Assembly: GCF_017301615.1 (NCBI RefSeq)
Contig: NZ_CP059066.1
Span: forward strand, 1,843,001 to 1,907,000
DNA from: Koleobacter methoxysyntrophicus
Lineage (GTDB): Bacteria > Bacillota > Thermosediminibacteria > Koleobacterales > Koleobacteraceae
Reading direction: 5' to 3'
Length of the DNA stretch: 64,000 nt
Shown here: positions 16,775 through 62,437 of the stretch, piece after piece
Numbering within the stretch: position 1 is the stretch's first letter
Layout: every line of letters starts with the position of its first letter
Program-made: the position numbers and the translations under genes
Notes under the pieces: generated by a model
Seen by the model: the letters and a program-made list of their open reading frames with translations, nothing else
Databases searched by the model: none
What the model was told of the DNA's origin: nothing

Positions 16775-16886
16775 GCTCTTATCGAGAGCAGGTGGAGGGA
16801 ATGGGCCCAATGAAACCCGGCAACCGGCCTGTAATTCAGGCAGCGGTGCTAATTCCCACAGAATTCCTGATTCTGGGAGATGAGAG
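16775..16886 (+). promoter_or_regulatory. SAM-I (S-box) riboswitch upstream of metK
   Basis: The leader carries the S-box blocks in order: CTCTTATCGAGAGCAGGTGG, GGGAATGGGCCC, ATGAAACCCGGCAACC, GGTGCTAATTCC and GGGAGATGAGAG. The last block pairs with the first CTCTTATC to close P1. SAM binding stabilises P1 and should favour the downstream terminator, turning metK off when SAM is plentiful. Two 16-bp copies of AAAGAACTTCAATAAA follow at about 16944-16976. Confidence 0.95.
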
Positions 16887-28406: not shown

Positions 28407-29570
28407 GTGAAAAAGATAAAAAACCTTACCCTGTTAATAATGTTAATTACCGTTTTTACTATAACATCGTGCACCCCGGAAAAAACGGAAATGGAGGGGT
28501 CAGTGCCTCTGCACGAGGGAAAAACAGCTGAAACAAAAAGGCTTTTATACCGGGAGGAACTGCTGCTGGGTTTTGTTATGAGGGAGATGATGTCACCTTA
28601 TGGCGGTATATATACGAATTATGATAAGGACGGGGTGTTTGAATACGGTGTCAGAGGTTGGGAAGTGCTCTCCGAATCTGTAGGTTTAATGATGTATTAT
28701 GCTGTGATTAGAGAAAATAAAGAGGTGTTCGATGCACAGTACAGGTTCCTTACTGAAAGGATGATGACAAAAGAGGGGTTTATTCCCTGGAAGGTTAATG
28801 AAGATGGGACACCGACTTCTTCAAGCAGTGCGGCGATTGATGATATCAGAATAGCGTATTCCCTCATTAAAGCACATCAATTGTGGAAAGACAGCAGGTA
28901 TCTGCAAACTGCCAAAAAAATTGCTTACAATTTAGTAAAATATGGAGTATATAAAAACTATTTGGTCGATTTTTATGACTGGGAATTTGGAACAAAGGGA
29001 AGTAGTGTTAAGCTTTCATGTATAGATATTGTAGGATTAAAGGCCCTTGCCTCGTACCAACCGGGTTTGCTGAGGGTAGCGGATACGGGTTTGGATCTGC
29101 TGAGAAAATCACTTTATTCTCCGCAGTATCCGTTTCGCAGGATACTGTATGACATTGAAAAAAAGACCTTTAAGAACGAATCTGCAGTAAACATGATCGA
29201 TACATTATATGTTTCAATCCACTTATCGGAAGCCGGAATAAAACAAAGGAAGATGCTGGATTGGATGAGGAAGGAAATAGGTGAAAGGGGTAAAATATAC
29301 GGGCGGTACCATCCGAGCAAAGGGGAGCCGGCAGTAAATTTCGAATCTGCGGCAGTTTATGCTTTAGGGGTGCAGCTTTCAATAAAAGAAGGGGATAGGG
29401 AACTGGCAGACATCCTCATGGAAAGGCTCTTAACCCTTCAGGATACGCGTGAAAACGCTCCGACCTATGGTGGTTTTGTTGACCCGTTCGAGGGTGACGG
29501 CCATTCCTTTGATAATCTGCAGGCCCTTATTGCTATGGCTTTACTGCATAATAGAGAGGGGAAGCGGTGA
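28407..29570 (+). CDS. GH8-like glycosidase lipoprotein of exopolysaccharide operon
   Basis: A 387-aa exported lipoprotein; the signal ends in a lipobox (ITSC with Cys at about 22). The mature part is an (alpha/alpha)6 barrel like GH8. VLSESVGLMMYYAVI near residue 95 holds the expected acid Glu, and AAIDDIRIAYSLIKAHQLW near 150 corresponds to the GH8 DADLDIA-type base helix. BcsZ of cellulose operons and chitosanases belong to GH8. Starting at GTG 28407, it is the first gene of a five-gene cluster and overlaps the next by one base. Its likely job is to trim or release the polymer at the cell surface. Confidence 0.72.
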   Translation: MKKIKNLTLLIMLITVFTITSCTPEKTEMEGSVPLHEGKTAETKRLLYREELLLGFVMREMMSPYGGIYTNYDKDGVFEYGVRGWEVLSESVGLMMYYAVIRENKEVFDAQYRFLTERMMTKEGFIPWKVNEDGTPTSSSSAAIDDIRIAYSLIKAHQLWKDSRYLQTAKKIAYNLVKYGVYKNYLVDFYDWEFGTKGSSVKLSCIDIVGLKALASYQPGLLRVADTGLDLLRKSLYSPQYPFRRILYDIEKKTFKNESAVNMIDTLYVSIHLSEAGIKQRKMLDWMRKEIGERGKIYGRYHPSKGEPAVNFESAAVYALGVQLSIKEGDRELADILMERLLTLQDTRENAPTYGGFVDPFEGDGHSFDNLQALIAMALLHNREGKR

Positions 29571-30424
29571 TGAAAAGTACTAAAAGACAAATAGACGGAG
29601 GGATAATATTAATCCTTATAATCTTTGCTGTTTTAGTTACTTTCATATTTATTGAATACCAGCAGTTGCCAATTGAAATATATTTCCTTTTTGCTCTGAA
29701 TACCTTATTGATTGTTTTTGCGTATTCTTTAGGCCTTGTAGCCGGGCTTATAGGGAGCATGGCCGCAGTTTTTTGCTACGGTACCTATTTAGTATACGGT
29801 GCAGTTGTAAAGGGGCTGATGATGGAAGTAAATTATCAGCAGGTCATGTGGCTGTTCCTTTTCCCTTTGAGTTCATACATTTCCGGCAGGCTTTCTTTAG
29901 CAATAAAGGAAACAATAGAAAAATCAGAGAAGTATATAAAAGACATGGAAGAACTTGTGCTTTTAGACAAGGAAACCGGTTTTAGCAATTCAAAGAAGTT
30001 TTACCTTGACCTTTCTGAGGAGATAAGCAAATCTAAGAGATACGGGACGCCCCTCAGCATAATGCTTATTAAACTGCAGTATTTTGATGAGCTAAGGTCA
30101 ATTTATGGAAATGAGGTATGTAGTAATGCCGTTATCAACATAAGCAGAAAGATAACGGAGCTTTCAAGGGATATCGATAAAAAAGCGAGACTTGAGGCGG
30201 ATAAATTCGCACTTATACTGTCAAATACCGATGAGAAAGGGGCACTGGTCCTTAAAGAAAGATTGGTGAAATTCTTAGAGAATTTAGAAATAAGCGATGA
30301 GGAGGATAGAAGAAAGCTGAATTTAAGTTTTAAAATTGGGATTGCACAGTTGGAAGATAAGGAAGAGGATGCTATTGCCTTTAAAGAAAGAGCCGAAAGG
30401 GAATTGGAGTATGATGTAAGATGA
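29570..30424 (+). CDS. PelD-like membrane protein with degenerate GGDEF and intact I-site
   Basis: A 284-aa protein with about four membrane helices (residues 10-110), a short coiled coil and a C-terminal GGDEF-fold domain (about 125-284). The active-site motif is EADKF instead of GGDEF, so cyclase activity is unlikely. Five residues before it stands RDID, the RxxD inhibitory site that binds c-di-GMP, at the canonical spacing. This combination is what makes PelD a c-di-GMP receptor in Pel operons, though I see no GAF domain here. Neighbours overlap at both ends (TGATG and ATGA), so it is stoichiometrically tied to the polysaccharide genes. I infer a post-translational activator. Confidence 0.78.
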   Translation: MKSTKRQIDGGIILILIIFAVLVTFIFIEYQQLPIEIYFLFALNTLLIVFAYSLGLVAGLIGSMAAVFCYGTYLVYGAVVKGLMMEVNYQQVMWLFLFPLSSYISGRLSLAIKETIEKSEKYIKDMEELVLLDKETGFSNSKKFYLDLSEEISKSKRYGTPLSIMLIKLQYFDELRSIYGNEVCSNAVINISRKITELSRDIDKKARLEADKFALILSNTDEKGALVLKERLVKFLENLEISDEEDRRKLNLSFKIGIAQLEDKEEDAIAFKERAERELEYDVR

Positions 30425-31986
30425 AAAGAACAGCCTTTCTAATGTTTTTATTTATCACTATAATAATGGCTATATTAACGGGTTCGAGCTTTGCCGTCAC
30501 TTACGGCGAAACCCGAAAACGGGTGCTGGTGGTATACGATAACCCTAATTTACTAAACAGGGATTATTCCGGGCTTGCTAACGATTTTTCCGTAATACTC
30601 TCGGAACAGCTGGGCCATTTCAATACAGAAGTAGAAGTAGTAATGGAAAATGAATACAAAGAGGGAATGCTGGAAGGCTACCAGTATATATTTTATCTGT
30701 CTTTGAGAGAAAAATATTCCGTTAACCAAGTGCTTCTGCAGGATATTGCCAATACTGCCAGGACAGTGATCTGGTATGGAGGAGGAATAGAGGAGCTTTT
30801 AAATGCCAATAAAAATATCCCTTTAAAATTCCGCGGCAGGTCAAAGACCTATCATCTTGTTGAGTATAATAAAGAAACTTTTAACTTGGGTCAAAATGCA
30901 GGAATAAACCTGCTGGTAGAGCCTTTAAGTGAAGAAGTGATTACCTACGGTAGGGTCAGCGACGGCAAAGGGGTTTACCCATTAATAGCTAACTGGAAGA
31001 ATTATTGGTTCATGTCAGGGCTGGATACTTCTGGAGTAAAGTACCTTGTATTTAGTGATGTGCTGCATGAAATTTTCGGGGAATACCACAGCGAATACAG
31101 GAAGGTATATCTGAGAATAGAGGATGTCAGCCCTCTTAGATCGCCGAAAAACCTTATGGAAATAGCCGATTACCTCTACAGTAAAAAAATACCTTTTATT
31201 ATTGCACTGATTCCGGCTTATATCAACCCCGAGACCGGTGTCGAAGTATCTATTACAGACAAACCGGAGGTCGTTAAGGCTGTTGGATATATGGTAGAAC
31301 GGGGTGGAACCGTAGTACTGCACGGCTACACCCATCAGCACTACAAAGAAGAGACAGGGGAAGGGTTTGAATTTTGGGATGCCTTTGAAGACAGGCCCCT
31401 TAATGTAAACTATGCTGATTATGTTAGGGAAAGGGTTTTAAAAGGCATAGAGATTTGCCGCGAAAACGGCCTGTACCCCCTGGCTTTTGAACCGCCCCAT
31501 TATGCCATGGCCCAGGATGGCTACAGGGAACTGAAGAAATATTTCTCTACGGTGATCGGTCAACTGCAGACTACTGACAGGAGATTTATCACTGCGTCGC
31601 TGCCGTACGAGATAAGAAATACTAAACGCTTTAACCGATTTCTGCCGGAATCCCTTGGATATGTGGCTGAAGACGGTAGTTTCGGTGTGAATGAGATCTT
31701 AAAAAATGCGGGGAAAATGCTTTTAGTAAGGGATGCCGTTACCGGGGTTTTCTTTCATTCTTTTATGGATAAGGCATATCTGAAACAGATTGTGGAAGGG
31801 CTTGAATCTATGGGATATGTCTTTGCGGATTTAGAGAAAGAAGACAATTGGGTAAAGATAGGGGATTACAATATAAGGAGCACCGCCAAAGGTGATATAA
31901 TATATGAGGGCCCTTTATTGAAAAAGGAAAAAATAAAATCAGGGATTAAAGAGGAGGAAAAAAATCCGCATTTCACAGAAGTATAG
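30421..31986 (+). CDS. DUF2334 polysaccharide deacetylase-like exported protein
   Basis: A 521-aa protein with a signal peptide (to about residue 27), an N-terminal domain of unknown fold (about 30-215) and a DUF2334 domain (about 220-490). DUF2334 is related to NodB-type polysaccharide deacetylases; YLRIEDVSPL carries the metal/catalytic Asp and VVLHGYTHQHY the metal histidines. In this operon it probably removes acetyl groups from the exported polymer. It overlaps the GGDEF-like gene by 4 nt. The C-terminus ends abruptly in a Lys/Glu tail beside an A7 run. A one-base shift would add a membrane anchor (see next entry). Confidence 0.8.
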   Translation: MKRTAFLMFLFITIIMAILTGSSFAVTYGETRKRVLVVYDNPNLLNRDYSGLANDFSVILSEQLGHFNTEVEVVMENEYKEGMLEGYQYIFYLSLREKYSVNQVLLQDIANTARTVIWYGGGIEELLNANKNIPLKFRGRSKTYHLVEYNKETFNLGQNAGINLLVEPLSEEVITYGRVSDGKGVYPLIANWKNYWFMSGLDTSGVKYLVFSDVLHEIFGEYHSEYRKVYLRIEDVSPLRSPKNLMEIADYLYSKKIPFIIALIPAYINPETGVEVSITDKPEVVKAVGYMVERGGTVVLHGYTHQHYKEETGEGFEFWDAFEDRPLNVNYADYVRERVLKGIEICRENGLYPLAFEPPHYAMAQDGYRELKKYFSTVIGQLQTTDRRFITASLPYEIRNTKRFNRFLPESLGYVAEDGSFGVNEILKNAGKMLLVRDAVTGVFFHSFMDKAYLKQIVEGLESMGYVFADLEKEDNWVKIGDYNIRSTAKGDIIYEGPLLKKEKIKSGIKEEEKNPHFTEV

Positions 31987-32105
31987 AAATTATCGCCACA
32001 TTTTTAGCTGTTTTTGTAGGCGTTAATATCTTGAGGTTTATCATCATATTTTTCAGGGTTAAAAAACGGCAGAAAGAAATCTTGTTCAAAGAGAGGGAAT
32101 TGTAA
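31950..32105 (+). CDS. Frame-shifted C-terminal membrane anchor of the DUF2334 protein, or small membrane protein
   Basis: This frame is open from 31950 to TAA 32103, abutting the GT2 start ATG 32106. It has no ATG, GTG or TTG. It encodes a hydrophobic helix (IIATFLAVFVGVNILRFIII) followed by a basic tail (FFRVKKRQKEILFKEREL), a textbook stop-transfer anchor. Joining the upstream DUF2334 frame requires a -1 shift in the run A7 at 31958-31964, equal to one missing A. AGGAGG sits directly upstream of the run. Either the assembly lost an A, or ribosomal/transcriptional slippage makes two forms (free and anchored). Not an independent gene in my view. Confidence 0.6.
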   Translation, partial: RGGKKSAFHRSIEIIATFLAVFVGVNILRFIIIFFRVKKRQKEILFKEREL

Positions 32106-33410
32106 ATGGGCCTTACATCGATGGACTTTTTGTTCTTATATGCATTAATCTCCATATGGATTATGTTGTTGTACCACATCTTCCTGGCTTTCAGCGGCTA
32201 TCGTTACCATGAAGAGGTTTACAGGGACCCTGGAGCTGTACTTTCAGCCATTAAGGAATACCCTTTTGTAACTATACTAGTTCCTGCCCATAATGAAGAA
32301 AAGGTTATAGGGCGGACGGTTAAGGCTGTAATGAACATGGATTACCCCCAGGATAAATTTGAGCTTATTGTGATAAATGACTGTTCTTCAGATAGGACGG
32401 GAGAAATACTCCAGGAGCTGCAGGAAGATTACAATAATCTGAAGGTAATTACAGTTTTACCTCCCGAAGGCGGAAGGGGGAAGGCCGCTGCCCTGAATAG
32501 AGGATTGAGAGAAGCCAAAGGAGAATATATAGCAGTATATGATGCCGATAATACCCCTGAAAGAATGGCCTTGAGGTATCTTGTGGCTGCTATAGTTCAG
32601 GAACCTCAGTTAGCCAGTGTTGTGGGCAAATTTAGAACCAGGAATAAGGATAGAAATATTCTTACCCGGTTTATAAACATAGAGACCCTCGGCTTTCAGT
32701 GGATTTCTCAGGCAGGAAGGTGGAAGCTTTTCAACATTTCTACCATCCCGGGGACAAATTATATTATAAGAAAAAGTATTTTGGACAGATTGGGGGGATG
32801 GAATGAAAAGGCCATTACAGAAGATACGGAACTGAGCATAAGGGTTTATGAAATGGGCTACAGGGAAGATACAGAGTTTAGTATGGAGCTATACGGCTTG
32901 GGTTACAAAATAAAATTTTTCCCTCTTGCGGTTACATGGGAACAGGAACCGGAAACCTGGAAGGTATGGCTTAAACAGAGGACTAGGTGGGTAAGGGGAA
33001 ACATATATGTCATCGGGGAATATTTATTTAAGCTGCTTTCTATAAAAAGGAAGATTATTGCCCTTGACATTCTGTACTTTTTTTCTATATATTTCCTGTT
33101 TCTTTCTTCTGTATTGATTTCTGATATAATATTCATTTCCGAGATCCTTGGTATATCCAATTTAACACTGCAGGGCCCCTTTTTCGTGTTGTGGGTGCTT
33201 GCGTACATATTATTCGTAATAGAAATGGCAATAGCAGTTAATCTTGAGAAAGGCGAAGGGAATTTAAAAAACATACTGCTGATAGCCCTTATGTATTTTA
33301 CATACTGCCAGATGTGGATATTCCTTACTTTGAGAAGCTTCTATTTATCCTTCAAGGATAGGTTGATGGGTATAAAAACCGTAAAATGGTATAAGACCGA
33401 AAGATTTTAA
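32106..33410 (+). CDS. Processive GT2 glycosyltransferase (cellulose/PNAG synthase-like), no PilZ domain
   Basis: A 434-aa inner-membrane enzyme with helices at about residues 5-28 and three or four after 310. The cytosolic GT-A domain has VINDCSSDRTGE (first Asp), YDADNTPER (DxD), AITEDTEL (TED) and QRTRW, all hallmarks of processive synthases such as BcsA and PgaC. There is no C-terminal PilZ domain, so c-di-GMP sensing must be by another protein. The TED segment is duplicated in tandem in frame (residues about 239-253 and 254-268). ATG 32106 abuts the upstream frame. It should polymerise and export a beta-linked polymer whose sugar is unknown. Confidence 0.88.
   Translation: MGLTSMDFLFLYALISIWIMLLYHIFLAFSGYRYHEEVYRDPGAVLSAIKEYPFVTILVPAHNEEKVIGRTVKAVMNMDYPQDKFELIVINDCSSDRTGEILQELQEDYNNLKVITVLPPEGGRGKAAALNRGLREAKGEYIAVYDADNTPERMALRYLVAAIVQEPQLASVVGKFRTRNKDRNILTRFINIETLGFQWISQAGRWKLFNISTIPGTNYIIRKSILDRLGGWNEKAITEDTELSIRVYEMGYREDTEFSMELYGLGYKIKFFPLAVTWEQEPETWKVWLKQRTRWVRGNIYVIGEYLFKLLSIKRKIIALDILYFFSIYFLFLSSVLISDIIFISEILGISNLTLQGPFFVLWVLAYILFVIEMAIAVNLEKGEGNLKNILLIALMYFTYCQMWIFLTLRSFYLSFKDRLMGIKTVKWYKTERF
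32820..32909 (+). repeat. In-frame 45-bp tandem duplication in the GT2 catalytic domain
   Basis: Codons at 32820-32864 read EDTELSIRVYEMGYR and those at 32865-32909 read EDTEFSMELYGLGYK: the same 15-residue unit twice with no spacer. The DNA has diverged, so the duplication is old and tolerated. Confidence 0.8.
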
Positions 33411-33430
33411 AGGGACTGCGGGGGTAAAGA

Positions 33431-35785
33431 ATGATAAGGAGAATCAAAAGAGATGGAATTATGACATTGGTTTTAGTGGTATTCCTTTCAAATTACCTAA
33501 TGGTATCGGCTGTAAAGGCAGCTGAGATATATACCAACCAGGTGGGGAGATTCAACTATTACAGCAATGCTGTGAGGCTGAAGGAGGATTTGGAGGGCAG
33601 GGGTTTTAAGGTTTATATGTCAGAGGGTCCTCCTTATGTGGTAACGGTTGGAAGAAGTTTGACCTATTCAGAAGCACTGCGGGTTAGGGAGAGGTTGAAG
33701 GGGCTTAATATCGATTGTTTCATAGTAAAAATCGACGAGGAAGGGAAAATAACCATTATTGAAGAATCGGATATAAAAGCACTTAATATCTTTCCGCTTT
33801 TAAATGACAGCATCTTACAGGGGGTGCACGGGAGTCAGACCTTATTTTTCTATGTTAATGAAAACTGGGAGCCGGAAGGTAGCAGCTATATTGATTTGTA
33901 TTTTTCCCATTCACTGGTTTCCACAAATCACAAGTCAACCCTCACAGTTTTTATAAATGATAGGCCTGTCAGCACTTTTGAACTTATAAACGAAAAAGCT
34001 GAGAACAGGGCAGTGAGGGTATATGTGCCGAAAGAGGTTGTAGAGAAAGGCTTCAATGCCCTTACACTTCGTCTTTATAAAAGGGTATCTGATGACCCTT
34101 GTGAAGATGCTTACAATCCCGGCAATTGGTTTACTTTAAAAAAAGAAACTATGATCCATTTAGAATACAGAGAAATAATGGATAGACCTATTTTAAGTAA
34201 CTATCCTTATCCTTACTTTAAAATAGGTAGGGAAGACCCTGTAGATGCTATTATAGTGATACCTAAGAATTTCAATCAACGGCACTTGAGTGCTGCAGCA
34301 TACTTGGCCGCTGGTTTTGGTAAATATGAGCCCTATAAAAATATTAGAGTTAAGGTAGTAACAGAGCCTGAAATTAAAGGATATTTAAATGACAGCAATT
34401 TAATCTTTATAGGCAGTGATGAGGAATTTGACAACATAGATGGCTTACCATCAACGCAGGAAGAGGAAGGAGCAGGTGTGCTGGAAGAATTTATTTCTCC
34501 ATGGAACCCCAGCAAAATGGTTTTGAGGATTGCGGGAAAAGGGGAGTATATTCAGGAGGCTTCTAAGGCTCTTTTCTACCCAAATGTGGTCAATCAGATG
34601 AAAAGGCCCCGTCAGGTGATTAAAAATTTAGAACTGCTGCTGGAGAAAGCAGACCCTTTTCTAGAAAAAGTAACTTTGTCTGATATAGGTTATGATGATA
34701 TAATTGTTAGAGGAAAACATCAGCAGGCGGCAGCTTTTAATTATAGTCTGCCTACACAGGTAGAGCTTAAGGAAGGAGCAGGTATAACCCTTAACCTTAG
34801 ATATTCTCAAGCCCTTCAATTTATTCAGGCATCTGTAACTGTTGAAGTAAACAATATACCCCTCGGCAGCAGAAGACTGACCTATGAAGGAGCAGAAGGG
34901 GAAGAGGTCTTCTTCAAATTCCCGCCGGAACTCCTTCGGGAGAAGAATTTCGGTATAAGAGTCTTGTTTAATCTAGATTTACGGGGGATTGACTGCACTC
35001 AAAGGTATGAGGAACATGCATGGGCAGTTATTGGCAGAAACAGCTTTTTGTATTTACCCCATGAAGAAGGCGACAGGAAAAACCTGAAAAACTATCACTA
35101 TATTTTCTCAAAAAACGGCAGGATTGAGGATACAGTAACTGTAATTCCGGATAACCCAAGACTAGGACACATAGAAACGGCCTTAAATATATTTGCACAT
35201 ATGGGACACTATTTAAAGGATTTAGGGGATATAGGCCTGGTAAAGGCAGGAGATTTAGCGGATGACCAAAAGGATAAAAATATGATACTTATCGGCACTC
35301 CGAGGGAAAATTTTTATATCAAAACAATAAACCAGCATCTGCCGGTTAAATTTGATGAAAACCGTGGGTGCTTTATTCCCAACAATGATTTCCCTTTTTT
35401 AGAGGAACTAGGAAACGAAGTCGGTATAGTTCAATTGATAGACTCCCCGTGGAGCAGCGGGAAAAAAGTGATGGTAGTTACCGGTGCAGATTATTTTGCA
35501 CTAAAAAATGCAGAAATAATGCTGACAAGCCTTAATATTGCAAATACCCTCTCAGGAGTAGTATGTATGATGGACAATGCAGGGGAAGTATATAGTTTTG
35601 AATCCGTGGAAAAGGCTGATACTATACAAAAAAACAAAGAGGATAAATCCAGTAAGCTGTTTTGGTTTCAAACGCTTCGTGAACTTCTCAGTCAGAGAAA
35701 CGGTAAAATACTTGCAGTTATTCTAGGGCTTATTATTGCTACAATGTTCATTCTATTCTATGTGATCAAGAAAAACTACCGGTGA
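33431..35785 (+). CDS. BcsB-like synthase subunit with N-terminal SPOR domain
   Basis: A 784-aa protein, last gene of the operon. A signal peptide (to about residue 33) is followed by a SPOR domain (about 35-105; IYTNQVGRFNYYSNAVRLKE, then YVVTVGRSLTYSEALRVRER), which in other proteins binds denuded peptidoglycan glycans. The rest is BcsB-like: two carbohydrate-binding-like and flavodoxin-like repeats (LQGVHGSQTLFFYV, SYIDLYFSHSLV, then FNYSLPTQVELKEGAG) and one C-terminal membrane helix (about 757-778). BcsB guides the nascent polymer outside the membrane and is needed for synthase activity. A SPOR fusion would tether the complex to the cell wall. A hairpin without T-run follows (35774-35801). 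Confidence 0.82.
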   Translation: MIRRIKRDGIMTLVLVVFLSNYLMVSAVKAAEIYTNQVGRFNYYSNAVRLKEDLEGRGFKVYMSEGPPYVVTVGRSLTYSEALRVRERLKGLNIDCFIVKIDEEGKITIIEESDIKALNIFPLLNDSILQGVHGSQTLFFYVNENWEPEGSSYIDLYFSHSLVSTNHKSTLTVFINDRPVSTFELINEKAENRAVRVYVPKEVVEKGFNALTLRLYKRVSDDPCEDAYNPGNWFTLKKETMIHLEYREIMDRPILSNYPYPYFKIGREDPVDAIIVIPKNFNQRHLSAAAYLAAGFGKYEPYKNIRVKVVTEPEIKGYLNDSNLIFIGSDEEFDNIDGLPSTQEEEGAGVLEEFISPWNPSKMVLRIAGKGEYIQEASKALFYPNVVNQMKRPRQVIKNLELLLEKADPFLEKVTLSDIGYDDIIVRGKHQQAAAFNYSLPTQVELKEGAGITLNLRYSQALQFIQASVTVEVNNIPLGSRRLTYEGAEGEEVFFKFPPELLREKNFGIRVLFNLDLRGIDCTQRYEEHAWAVIGRNSFLYLPHEEGDRKNLKNYHYIFSKNGRIEDTVTVIPDNPRLGHIETALNIFAHMGHYLKDLGDIGLVKAGDLADDQKDKNMILIGTPRENFYIKTINQHLPVKFDENRGCFIPNNDFPFLEELGNEVGIVQLIDSPWSSGKKVMVVTGADYFALKNAEIMLTSLNIANTLSGVVCMMDNAGEVYSFESVEKADTIQKNKEDKSSKLFWFQTLRELLSQRNGKILAVILGLIIATMFILFYVIKKNYR

Positions 35786-51149: not shown

Positions 51150-51173
51150 TTAATTAGCAATTCAATAATGTAA

Positions 51174-51284
51174 TCGCTTAATCCGAGAGGAACGGGGGAC
51201 CCAATTTTTCAGGGGCGAATCTCTTCTACACGGAAGGGTAGGGTTACTCTTTCGACCCAAGCCCGTCAGCTAACCTCGTAAGCG
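51174..51284 (+). promoter_or_regulatory. c-di-AMP riboswitch (ydaO/yuaA class)
   Basis: The leader matches the ydaO consensus closely. It starts CGCTTAATCCGAGAGGAACG, then GGGGACCCAA, GGGGCGAATCTCTTCT, GGGTAGGGTTACTCTTTCGA, CCCGTCAGCTAACCTCG and ends TAAGCG, which pairs with CGCTTA. Members of this class are off-switches for c-di-AMP, usually for K+ or osmolyte transport and cell-wall enzymes. Here it precedes an oligopeptide ABC importer. Confidence 0.95.
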
Positions 51285-51303
51285 TTGAAGGGGAAATATC
51301 CGG

Positions 51304-60734: not shown

Positions 60735-60764
60735 TCTATTCAAATATATCGATAACCGATGTAA

Positions 60765-61054
60765 AAGCTGTGAAAGGGGAAAGTAGGTTCATTTCGGACC
60801 TTTTAGCGAGCCGGGGATGGTGTAAGCCCGGTGGAAAGGATGGATCGAAGTTCCCCCTGGAGCTGCGAGTTGAAAGGATTTCGAGTAGATGGAGCCGGAA
60901 ACTTCCACCGTTAAAAGGAAGGGGGTATAAGGATTTATTATTGTATATCCCGTACCCTTTTAAAGAGAGGGTTTATATGTTATATATAAACCAAGGTGGG
61001 TGGTACCGCGGAAATATTCCTCCGTCCCAAAATGGGAACGGAGGTTTTTTATTT
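60765..61054 (+). promoter_or_regulatory. T-box riboswitch, Phe (UUC) specifier, upstream of pheA
   Basis: Stem I contains AGCGAGCCGGGGATGGTGTAA and GGAAACTT-type blocks. The specifier codon TTC at 60851-60853 follows GAAG and precedes CCCCCTGGAG, the canonical register. The T-box AAGGTGGGTGGTACCGCGG is at 60993-61011 with TGGT pairing to tRNA 3' ACCA. The terminator CCTCCGT..ACGGAGG + T6 is at 61019-61050. Uncharged tRNA-Phe should allow read-through into pheA. Confidence 0.92.
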
Positions 61055-62204: not shown

Positions 62205-62437
62205 TCAAAAGTGATGACGGAAAGAAGTAACCTTTTTAGTCTACAAAGAGAGCCGGTGGTTGGTGTAAACCGGTTAGACGAAAGGTGAAATACATTCCTG
62301 AACTGCAGGCTGAACGGTAGGTTTACCCTGTAGGCTGTGCCGTAATTTACGTTATAAAGCAGAGTGGATTTATCCTTGGATAAATCAACTTGGGTGGTAC
62401 CGCGGATTAGACCTCGCCCCATACGGGCGGGGTTTTT
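62205..62437 (+). promoter_or_regulatory. T-box riboswitch, Tyr (UAC) specifier, upstream of aroF-tyrA (module 1)
   Basis: Specifier TAC follows GAAA and precedes ATTCCTGAACTGCAGG, in the same register as the Phe leader. The first T-box AACTTGGGTGGTACCGCGG is at 62387-62405 and its terminator CCTCGCCC / GGGCGGGG + T5 at 62411-62437. Confidence 0.92.

What the first reader, a model, noticed from the sequence alone, without database searches (positions are those of the whole stretch)
28407..35785. Exopolysaccharide operon pairing a BcsA/B-type synthase with a PelD-like c-di-GMP receptor
Seen: five overlapping or abutting genes encode a GH8-like lipoprotein, a four-helix degenerate-GGDEF protein, a DUF2334 deacetylase, a processive GT2 without PilZ, and BcsB. 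Known: BcsA normally senses c-di-GMP through its own PilZ domain, and PelD senses it through a degenerate GGDEF in Pel operons. Inference: this locus swaps the two, so a separate membrane receptor controls a cellulose- or chitosan-like synthase, and the polymer is deacetylated outside the cell.
Basis: partly seen in the sequence, partly recalled or inferred. Interest (0 to 1): 0.85.

Follow-up and report, generated by a model that had tools for sequence, protein, structure and literature searches.

The report
Known-type c-di-GMP-controlled exopolysaccharide operon
This five-gene operon is a clostridial-type member of an already described bacterial sugar-polymer machine (Bacillus subtilis YdaJKLMN, Listeria PssA-E), in which a separate membrane receptor for the signal molecule c-di-GMP is thought to switch on the polymer synthase.

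Summary
The five genes are real, in the stated order: GH126/GH8-like lipoprotein, 4-TM degenerate-GGDEF protein, DUF2334 protein, processive GT2 without PilZ, BcsB. A separate I-site receptor paired with a PilZ-less synthase and BcsB is well supported. It is not a new swap of a PelD-like part into a Bcs operon: Listeria Pss (PssE binds c-di-GMP, Kd 0.79 uM; published 2014) and B. subtilis ydaJKLMN (receptor YdaK) already work this way. In 86 GT2 loci of this family, mostly Bacillota, the receptor is present in 81, never keeps GGDEF/GGEEF, and keeps RxxD in 77 of 80. The window has the receptor second, as in ydaJKLMN; the Listeria order (receptor last) is one clade, apparently nested within the first. 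The receptor is not a PelD (no GAF, no PelD model hit). The polymer is more likely ManNAc-based than cellulose or chitosan. Modest lineage details: intact DUF2334 active-site motifs (lost in every Listeria-type copy), an N-terminal SPOR domain on BcsB, a tandemly duplicated TED loop in the GT2, and an out-of-frame DUF2334 anchor. Verdict: new member of a known kind, low-to-moderate interest.

The parts
28407..29570 (+). GH126 (GH8-like, PssZ/YdaJ-type) lipoprotein glycoside hydrolase; lipobox-like ITSC; catalytic Glu of LSES motif kept
29567..30424 (+). PssE/YdaK-type c-di-GMP receptor: 4 TM helices + degenerate GGDEF domain
30167..30178 (+). primary I-site RDID (receptor residues 201-204)
30194..30208 (+). 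ruined active-site motif EADKF in place of GGDEF (residues 210-214)
30421..31986 (+). DUF2334 putative extracellular deacetylase with intact RIEDV / HGYTHQ / FEPPHYA motifs
31966..32105 (+). C-terminal membrane anchor of the DUF2334 protein, out of frame in this genome after a 7-A tract; in frame in the nearest relative
32106..33410 (+). processive GT2 synthase (PssC/YdaM-type), no PilZ domain
32820..32909 (+). 45-nt in-frame tandem duplication of the TED-loop segment of the GT2 (EDTELSIRVYEMGYR / EDTEFSMELYGLGYK)
33431..35785 (+). BcsB (PssD/YdaN-type), the only BcsB of the genome
33530..33730 (+). N-terminal SPOR domain of the BcsB (aa 34-100)

Best explanation
The operon encodes a synthase-dependent exopolysaccharide machine of the YdaJKLMN/Pss kind. 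The GT2 (YdaM/PssC) polymerises and extrudes a beta-linked amino-sugar polymer, most likely ManNAc-based, with BcsB (YdaN/PssD) as extracellular partner. The four-helix protein (YdaK/PssE) binds c-di-GMP at its RxxD I-site and switches the synthase on in the membrane. The GH126 lipoprotein trims or releases the polymer. The DUF2334 protein probably removes acetyl groups outside the cell. Shown here: gene content, order, family membership, I-site conservation, absence of PilZ. Inferred by homology with tested relatives: c-di-GMP binding and activation. Inferred only: sugar identity, deacetylation, receptor-to-GT2 contact.
For: GT2 is 49% identical to PssC of a Listeria innocua record; BcsB, receptor and hydrolase match PssD (22%, 8e-38), PssE (27%, 1e-19) and PssZ (phmmer 2e-23). 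Of 86 GT2 loci, 81 carry the receptor in the cluster; 0 of 81 keep GGDEF/GGEEF and 77 of 80 keep RxxD at the same spacing, the exceptions being three Enterococcus receptors. R157, R200 and D203 (the I-site residues) are among the 8 nearly invariant columns of 52 receptors that average 34% column identity. Listeria PssE binds c-di-GMP (Kd 0.79 uM) and is essential for EPS (PMC4125290). YdaK binds c-di-GMP (Kd 1 uM), and its RxxD residues and dgcK are required for EPS (PMC5422440). YdaK co-localises with YdaM/YdaN (PMC7064775). The genome has six other GGDEF proteins that could make the signal, one BcsB and one UDP-GlcNAc 2-epimerase for UDP-ManNAc.
Against: No experiment on this organism. The receptor is only 27% identical to PssE. 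No PssA-like gene between hydrolase and DUF2334, unlike Listeria. The 2-epimerase is not in the cluster, a search of the loci's ORFs with it found no linked copy, and such epimerases are widespread (controls). B. subtilis yda proteins could not be fetched for direct comparison.
Confidence: 0.88

Rival explanations
1. A genuinely new hybrid: a Pel-type receptor (PelD) recruited into a Bcs cellulose operon, making cellulose or chitosan.
For: PelD also has four TM helices and a degenerate GGDEF with an RxxD I-site (established knowledge); GT2 and BcsB are distant kin of BcsA/BcsB.
Against: No GAF domain and no PelD family hit in Pfam; model is 4 TM + helix + GGDEF only; no PelD named among the 50 best fold matches. 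The GT2 clade is shared with Listeria PssC, whose product is not cellulose.
Confidence: 0.05
2. The receptor is a vestigial diguanylate cyclase with no ligand role; the synthase is constitutive or is regulated by a PilZ protein elsewhere.
For: Active site is destroyed; two PilZ proteins exist in the genome.
Against: I-site residues are kept in nearly every family member while the active site is lost in all; the receptor stays linked to the GT2 in two gene orders; the PilZ genes lie in flagellar/chemotaxis and Tad-pilus clusters.
Confidence: 0.05
3. The operon is partly decayed in this genome: the deacetylase lost its anchor by a frame change and the GT2 carries a disruptive duplication, so it makes little or no polymer.
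For: Anchor out of frame; duplicated loop is low-confidence in the model.
Against: The duplication is shared with a relative whose GT2 is 87-88% identical, so it has been kept through divergence; all other frames are open; the catalytic TED of the first copy is intact. A 7-A tract is also a common place for an assembly error.
Confidence: 0.1

Closest known systems
Bacillus subtilis ydaJKLMN (YdaK c-di-GMP receptor EPS system)
   Same: Same roles in the same gene order (glycosyl hydrolase, degenerate-GGDEF TM receptor, then three EPS genes); YdaK has 4 TM helices and RxxD five residues before a ruined motif (SDERI), as here (PMC5422440, PMC13274460).
   Different: Under SigB control in B. subtilis; here BcsB has a SPOR domain and the GT2 a duplicated TED loop. 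YdaJKLMN sequences were not compared directly.
Listeria pssA-E / pssZ (Pss exopolysaccharide)
   Same: PssB DUF2334, PssC GT2, PssD BcsB, PssE I-site receptor and PssZ GH126 all have a counterpart here.
   Different: Receptor gene is last and a PssA gene is present; PssZ is encoded elsewhere; the DUF2334 active-site motifs are lost in Listeria-type copies.
Clostridioides difficile BcsA/B-pair locus with WecB, GH113 and a deacetylase (PMC7710045)
   Same: Clostridial GT2 + BcsB + deacetylase; a C. difficile locus in the survey has receptor-DUF2334-GT2-BcsB and an intact DUF2334 (L064). Whether L064 is the locus described was not checked.
   Different: That paper reports a GH113 and WecB in the context; the window has a GH126 and no epimerase in the cluster.
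Pel operon (PelD, incl. Gram-positive pelDEADAFG)
   Same: Works alike: I-site receptor separate from the synthase.
   Different: No GAF in the receptor; none of the five window proteins is PelA, PelF or PelG.
BcsA/BcsB and CcsA cellulose synthases
   Same: Distant GT2 and BcsB kin.
   Different: BcsA and CcsA carry their own PilZ domain; this GT2 does not.

Membership tests
YdaJKLMN / Pss EPS systems | PilZ-less processive GT2 plus BcsB in one operon | tested here: met
YdaJKLMN / Pss EPS systems | TM receptor with degenerate GGDEF and kept RxxD I-site | tested here: met
YdaJKLMN / Pss EPS systems | DUF2334 gene and GH126/PssZ-type hydrolase | tested here: met
YdaJKLMN / Pss EPS systems | GT2 falls in the same clade as Listeria PssC | tested here: met
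   one family (98/96) apart from two more distant plasmid GT2s, which are long branches
YdaJKLMN / Pss EPS systems | c-di-GMP binding and c-di-GMP-dependent EPS | not testable with these tools
   needs experiment
PelD | GAF domain between TM region and degenerate GGDEF; PelD family model hit | tested here: not met
Pel operon | pelA/pelF/pelG genes present in the operon | tested here: not met
   the five operon proteins are other families
Bcs cellulose synthase | C-terminal PilZ on the catalytic subunit | tested here: not met
Bcs cellulose synthase | cellulose as product | not testable with these tools
   needs polymer chemistry
GH8 | closest relatives are GH8 enzymes | tested here: not met
   GH126 CPF_2247 and PssZ score far better than any GH8

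The most novel reading that the evidence does not exclude
This lineage runs a cationic variant of the Pss machine: an active DUF2334 deacetylase makes partly deacetylated poly-ManNAc, and a SPOR domain on BcsB docks the machine at septal peptidoglycan. The Listeria-type branch moved the receptor to the 3' end and lost the deacetylase active site, giving a neutral polymer. The duplicated TED loop of the GT2 may change its c-di-GMP gating or sugar choice.
Probability: 0.25. Interest if true: 0.45.

Novelty: new member of a known kind. Interest (0 to 1): 0.22.

Why it matters
It shows that the I-site-receptor way of controlling a BcsB-linked synthase, known from Listeria and Bacillus, is widespread in Clostridia, Paenibacillaceae, lactobacilli and others, with two gene orders and a split between intact and ruined deacetylases. 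That split gives a testable prediction about polymer charge. The locus itself adds no new principle.

Tried and rejected
No c-di-GMP riboswitch or other RNA family lies at the operon, so transcriptional c-di-GMP control through a known riboswitch was rejected. Promoter and terminator scans gave no more sites than shuffles. UDP-GlcNAc 2-epimerase linkage to the loci was looked for and not found. DUF2334 has no solved relative by sequence; the TSG101 hits (E about 0.005) were judged spurious. Plasmid-borne GT2s of Priestia and Acinetobacter (L052, L053) were judged more distant (33-37%).

Full report
OBSERVATION. The five genes are present at the given coordinates on the + strand. Family scans give GH8-like, GGDEF, DUF2334, GT2 and BcsB plus SPOR, and no PilZ. 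The first two junctions overlap by 4 nt, GT2 to BcsB is 20 nt, and DUF2334 to GT2 is a 119-nt gap. That gap encodes, in another frame, the C-terminal membrane anchor that the nearest relative has in frame; the frame change follows a run of seven A.

THE RECEPTOR. Protein 2 reads RDID-KKARL-EADKF where a working cyclase reads RxxD-x5-GGDEF. An AlphaFold2 model built on 52 family members (mean pLDDT 91.6) has four TM helices, a linking helix and a GGDEF fold, with no GAF domain. Its best fold matches are GGDEF proteins, several of them c-di-GMP-bound. Pfam gives only GGDEF, not a PelD model. So it works like PelD but is not one.

THE FAMILY. A scan of 84,980 species genomes with a GT2 alignment gave 80 named loci. 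Together with loci from other sources, 86 distinct GT2 loci were classified: 81 have the receptor in the cluster. None of the 81 keeps GGDEF or GGEEF; 77 of 80 readable ones keep RxxD at the same spacing. The three that lost it are all Enterococcus. Nearly invariant receptor columns are L60, F68, W94, D133, T136, R157, R200 and D203 (numbering one lower than in the full protein). The last three correspond to the secondary and primary I-site residues named for YdaK (PMC5422440).

TWO GENE ORDERS. Order I is hydrolase-receptor-DUF2334-GT2-BcsB (window; also Tepidibacter, Peptoclostridium, Desulfosporosinus, Brevibacillus, Tumebacillus, some Paenibacillus; several Clostridium and C. difficile lack the hydrolase). 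Order II is hydrolase-(gap)-DUF2334-GT2-BcsB-receptor (Listeria, Enterococcus, lactobacilli, Acetobacterium, most Paenibacillus and Cohnella; the hydrolase is missing or elsewhere in Listeria and Acetobacterium). On a maximum-likelihood GT2 tree the order II loci are one group (100/98); with two distant GT2s as outgroup they sit inside order I, but the outgroup branches are long, so the direction is tentative. DUF2334 catalytic motifs are complete in the window and 13 other order I loci and in none of 43 order II loci. This suggests that the Listeria-type protein is a pseudo-deacetylase, while the window protein could be active.

KNOWN SYSTEMS. Listeria pssA-E: PssC is a GT2, PssD a BcsB orthologue, PssE an I-site receptor with Kd 0.79 uM that is essential for EPS (PMC4125290); its polymer is beta-1,4-ManNAc with galactose (PMC6307706). 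An L. innocua record shows PssB to be DUF2334, and window proteins match it. B. subtilis ydaJKLMN: hydrolase, receptor YdaK with 4 TM helices and a ruined SDERI motif, and YdaLMN; Kd 1 uM, RxxD and dgcK required (PMC5422440, PMC13274460); YdaK clusters with YdaM and YdaN (PMC7064775). B. subtilis also has BcsB and DUF2334 family matches (controls). A C. difficile BcsA/B pair was already predicted to make partly deacetylated ManNAc-rich EPS (PMC7710045).

THE CELL. The genome has six other GGDEF proteins, no EAL, a single BcsB, one UDP-GlcNAc 2-epimerase and two PilZ proteins, one in a flagellar/chemotaxis cluster and one in a Tad-pilus cluster. c-di-GMP can thus probably be made, and the receptor is the only candidate receptor in the operon. 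HD-GYP phosphodiesterases were not searched for.

WHAT IS PARTICULAR. (1) The GT2 has a 45-nt tandem duplication of the TED-loop segment, shared only with MAG UBA3567; the second copy is modelled with low confidence. (2) BcsB carries an N-terminal SPOR domain, also seen in Peptoclostridium, Fusibacter and one MAG. (3) The DUF2334 anchor is out of frame. These are lineage variations, not a new kind of system.

MECHANISM AND CONFIDENCE. c-di-GMP binds the I-site of the receptor in the membrane; the bound receptor activates the adjacent GT2, which extrudes polymer past BcsB; the hydrolase and the DUF2334 enzyme act outside. Steps 1 and 2 rest on tested relatives plus the conservation found here; the contact and the polymer identity are inferred.

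Noticed in passing
window 32820-32909: In-frame tandem duplication (45 nt) of the catalytic TED-loop segment of the GT2, shared only with MAG UBA3567 (L056) among 86 family loci; modelled as a low-confidence loop.
   Followed up: partly
window 31966-32105: The C-terminal membrane anchor of the DUF2334 protein is out of frame after a 7-A tract; the nearest relative has it in frame. Could be assembly error, phase variation or slippage.
   Followed up: partly
window 33530-33730: SPOR domain at the N-terminus of BcsB, also in L069, L086 and L073 but not in L057, L101, L112, L114 or L129.
   Followed up: partly
L051, L105, L135: Enterococcus receptors of this family have lost the RxxD I-site although they remain in the operon.
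   Followed up: no
L123 (Bacteroidetes MAG), L113 (Proteobacteria MAG): GT2s of this family next to a 1309-aa DUF2334 protein (L123) or without any other detected partner (L113) in MAGs labelled as non-Bacillota; may be transfer or binning error.
   Followed up: no
L134 (Halobacillus alkaliphilus): Two DUF2334 genes, GT2 and GH126 but no BcsB or receptor detected in the cluster.
   Followed up: no
window 51165-51299; 16776-16886; 60761-61032; 62205-62424: c-di-AMP (ydaO) riboswitch, SAM riboswitch and two T-box leaders (Rfam); unrelated to the operon.
   Followed up: no
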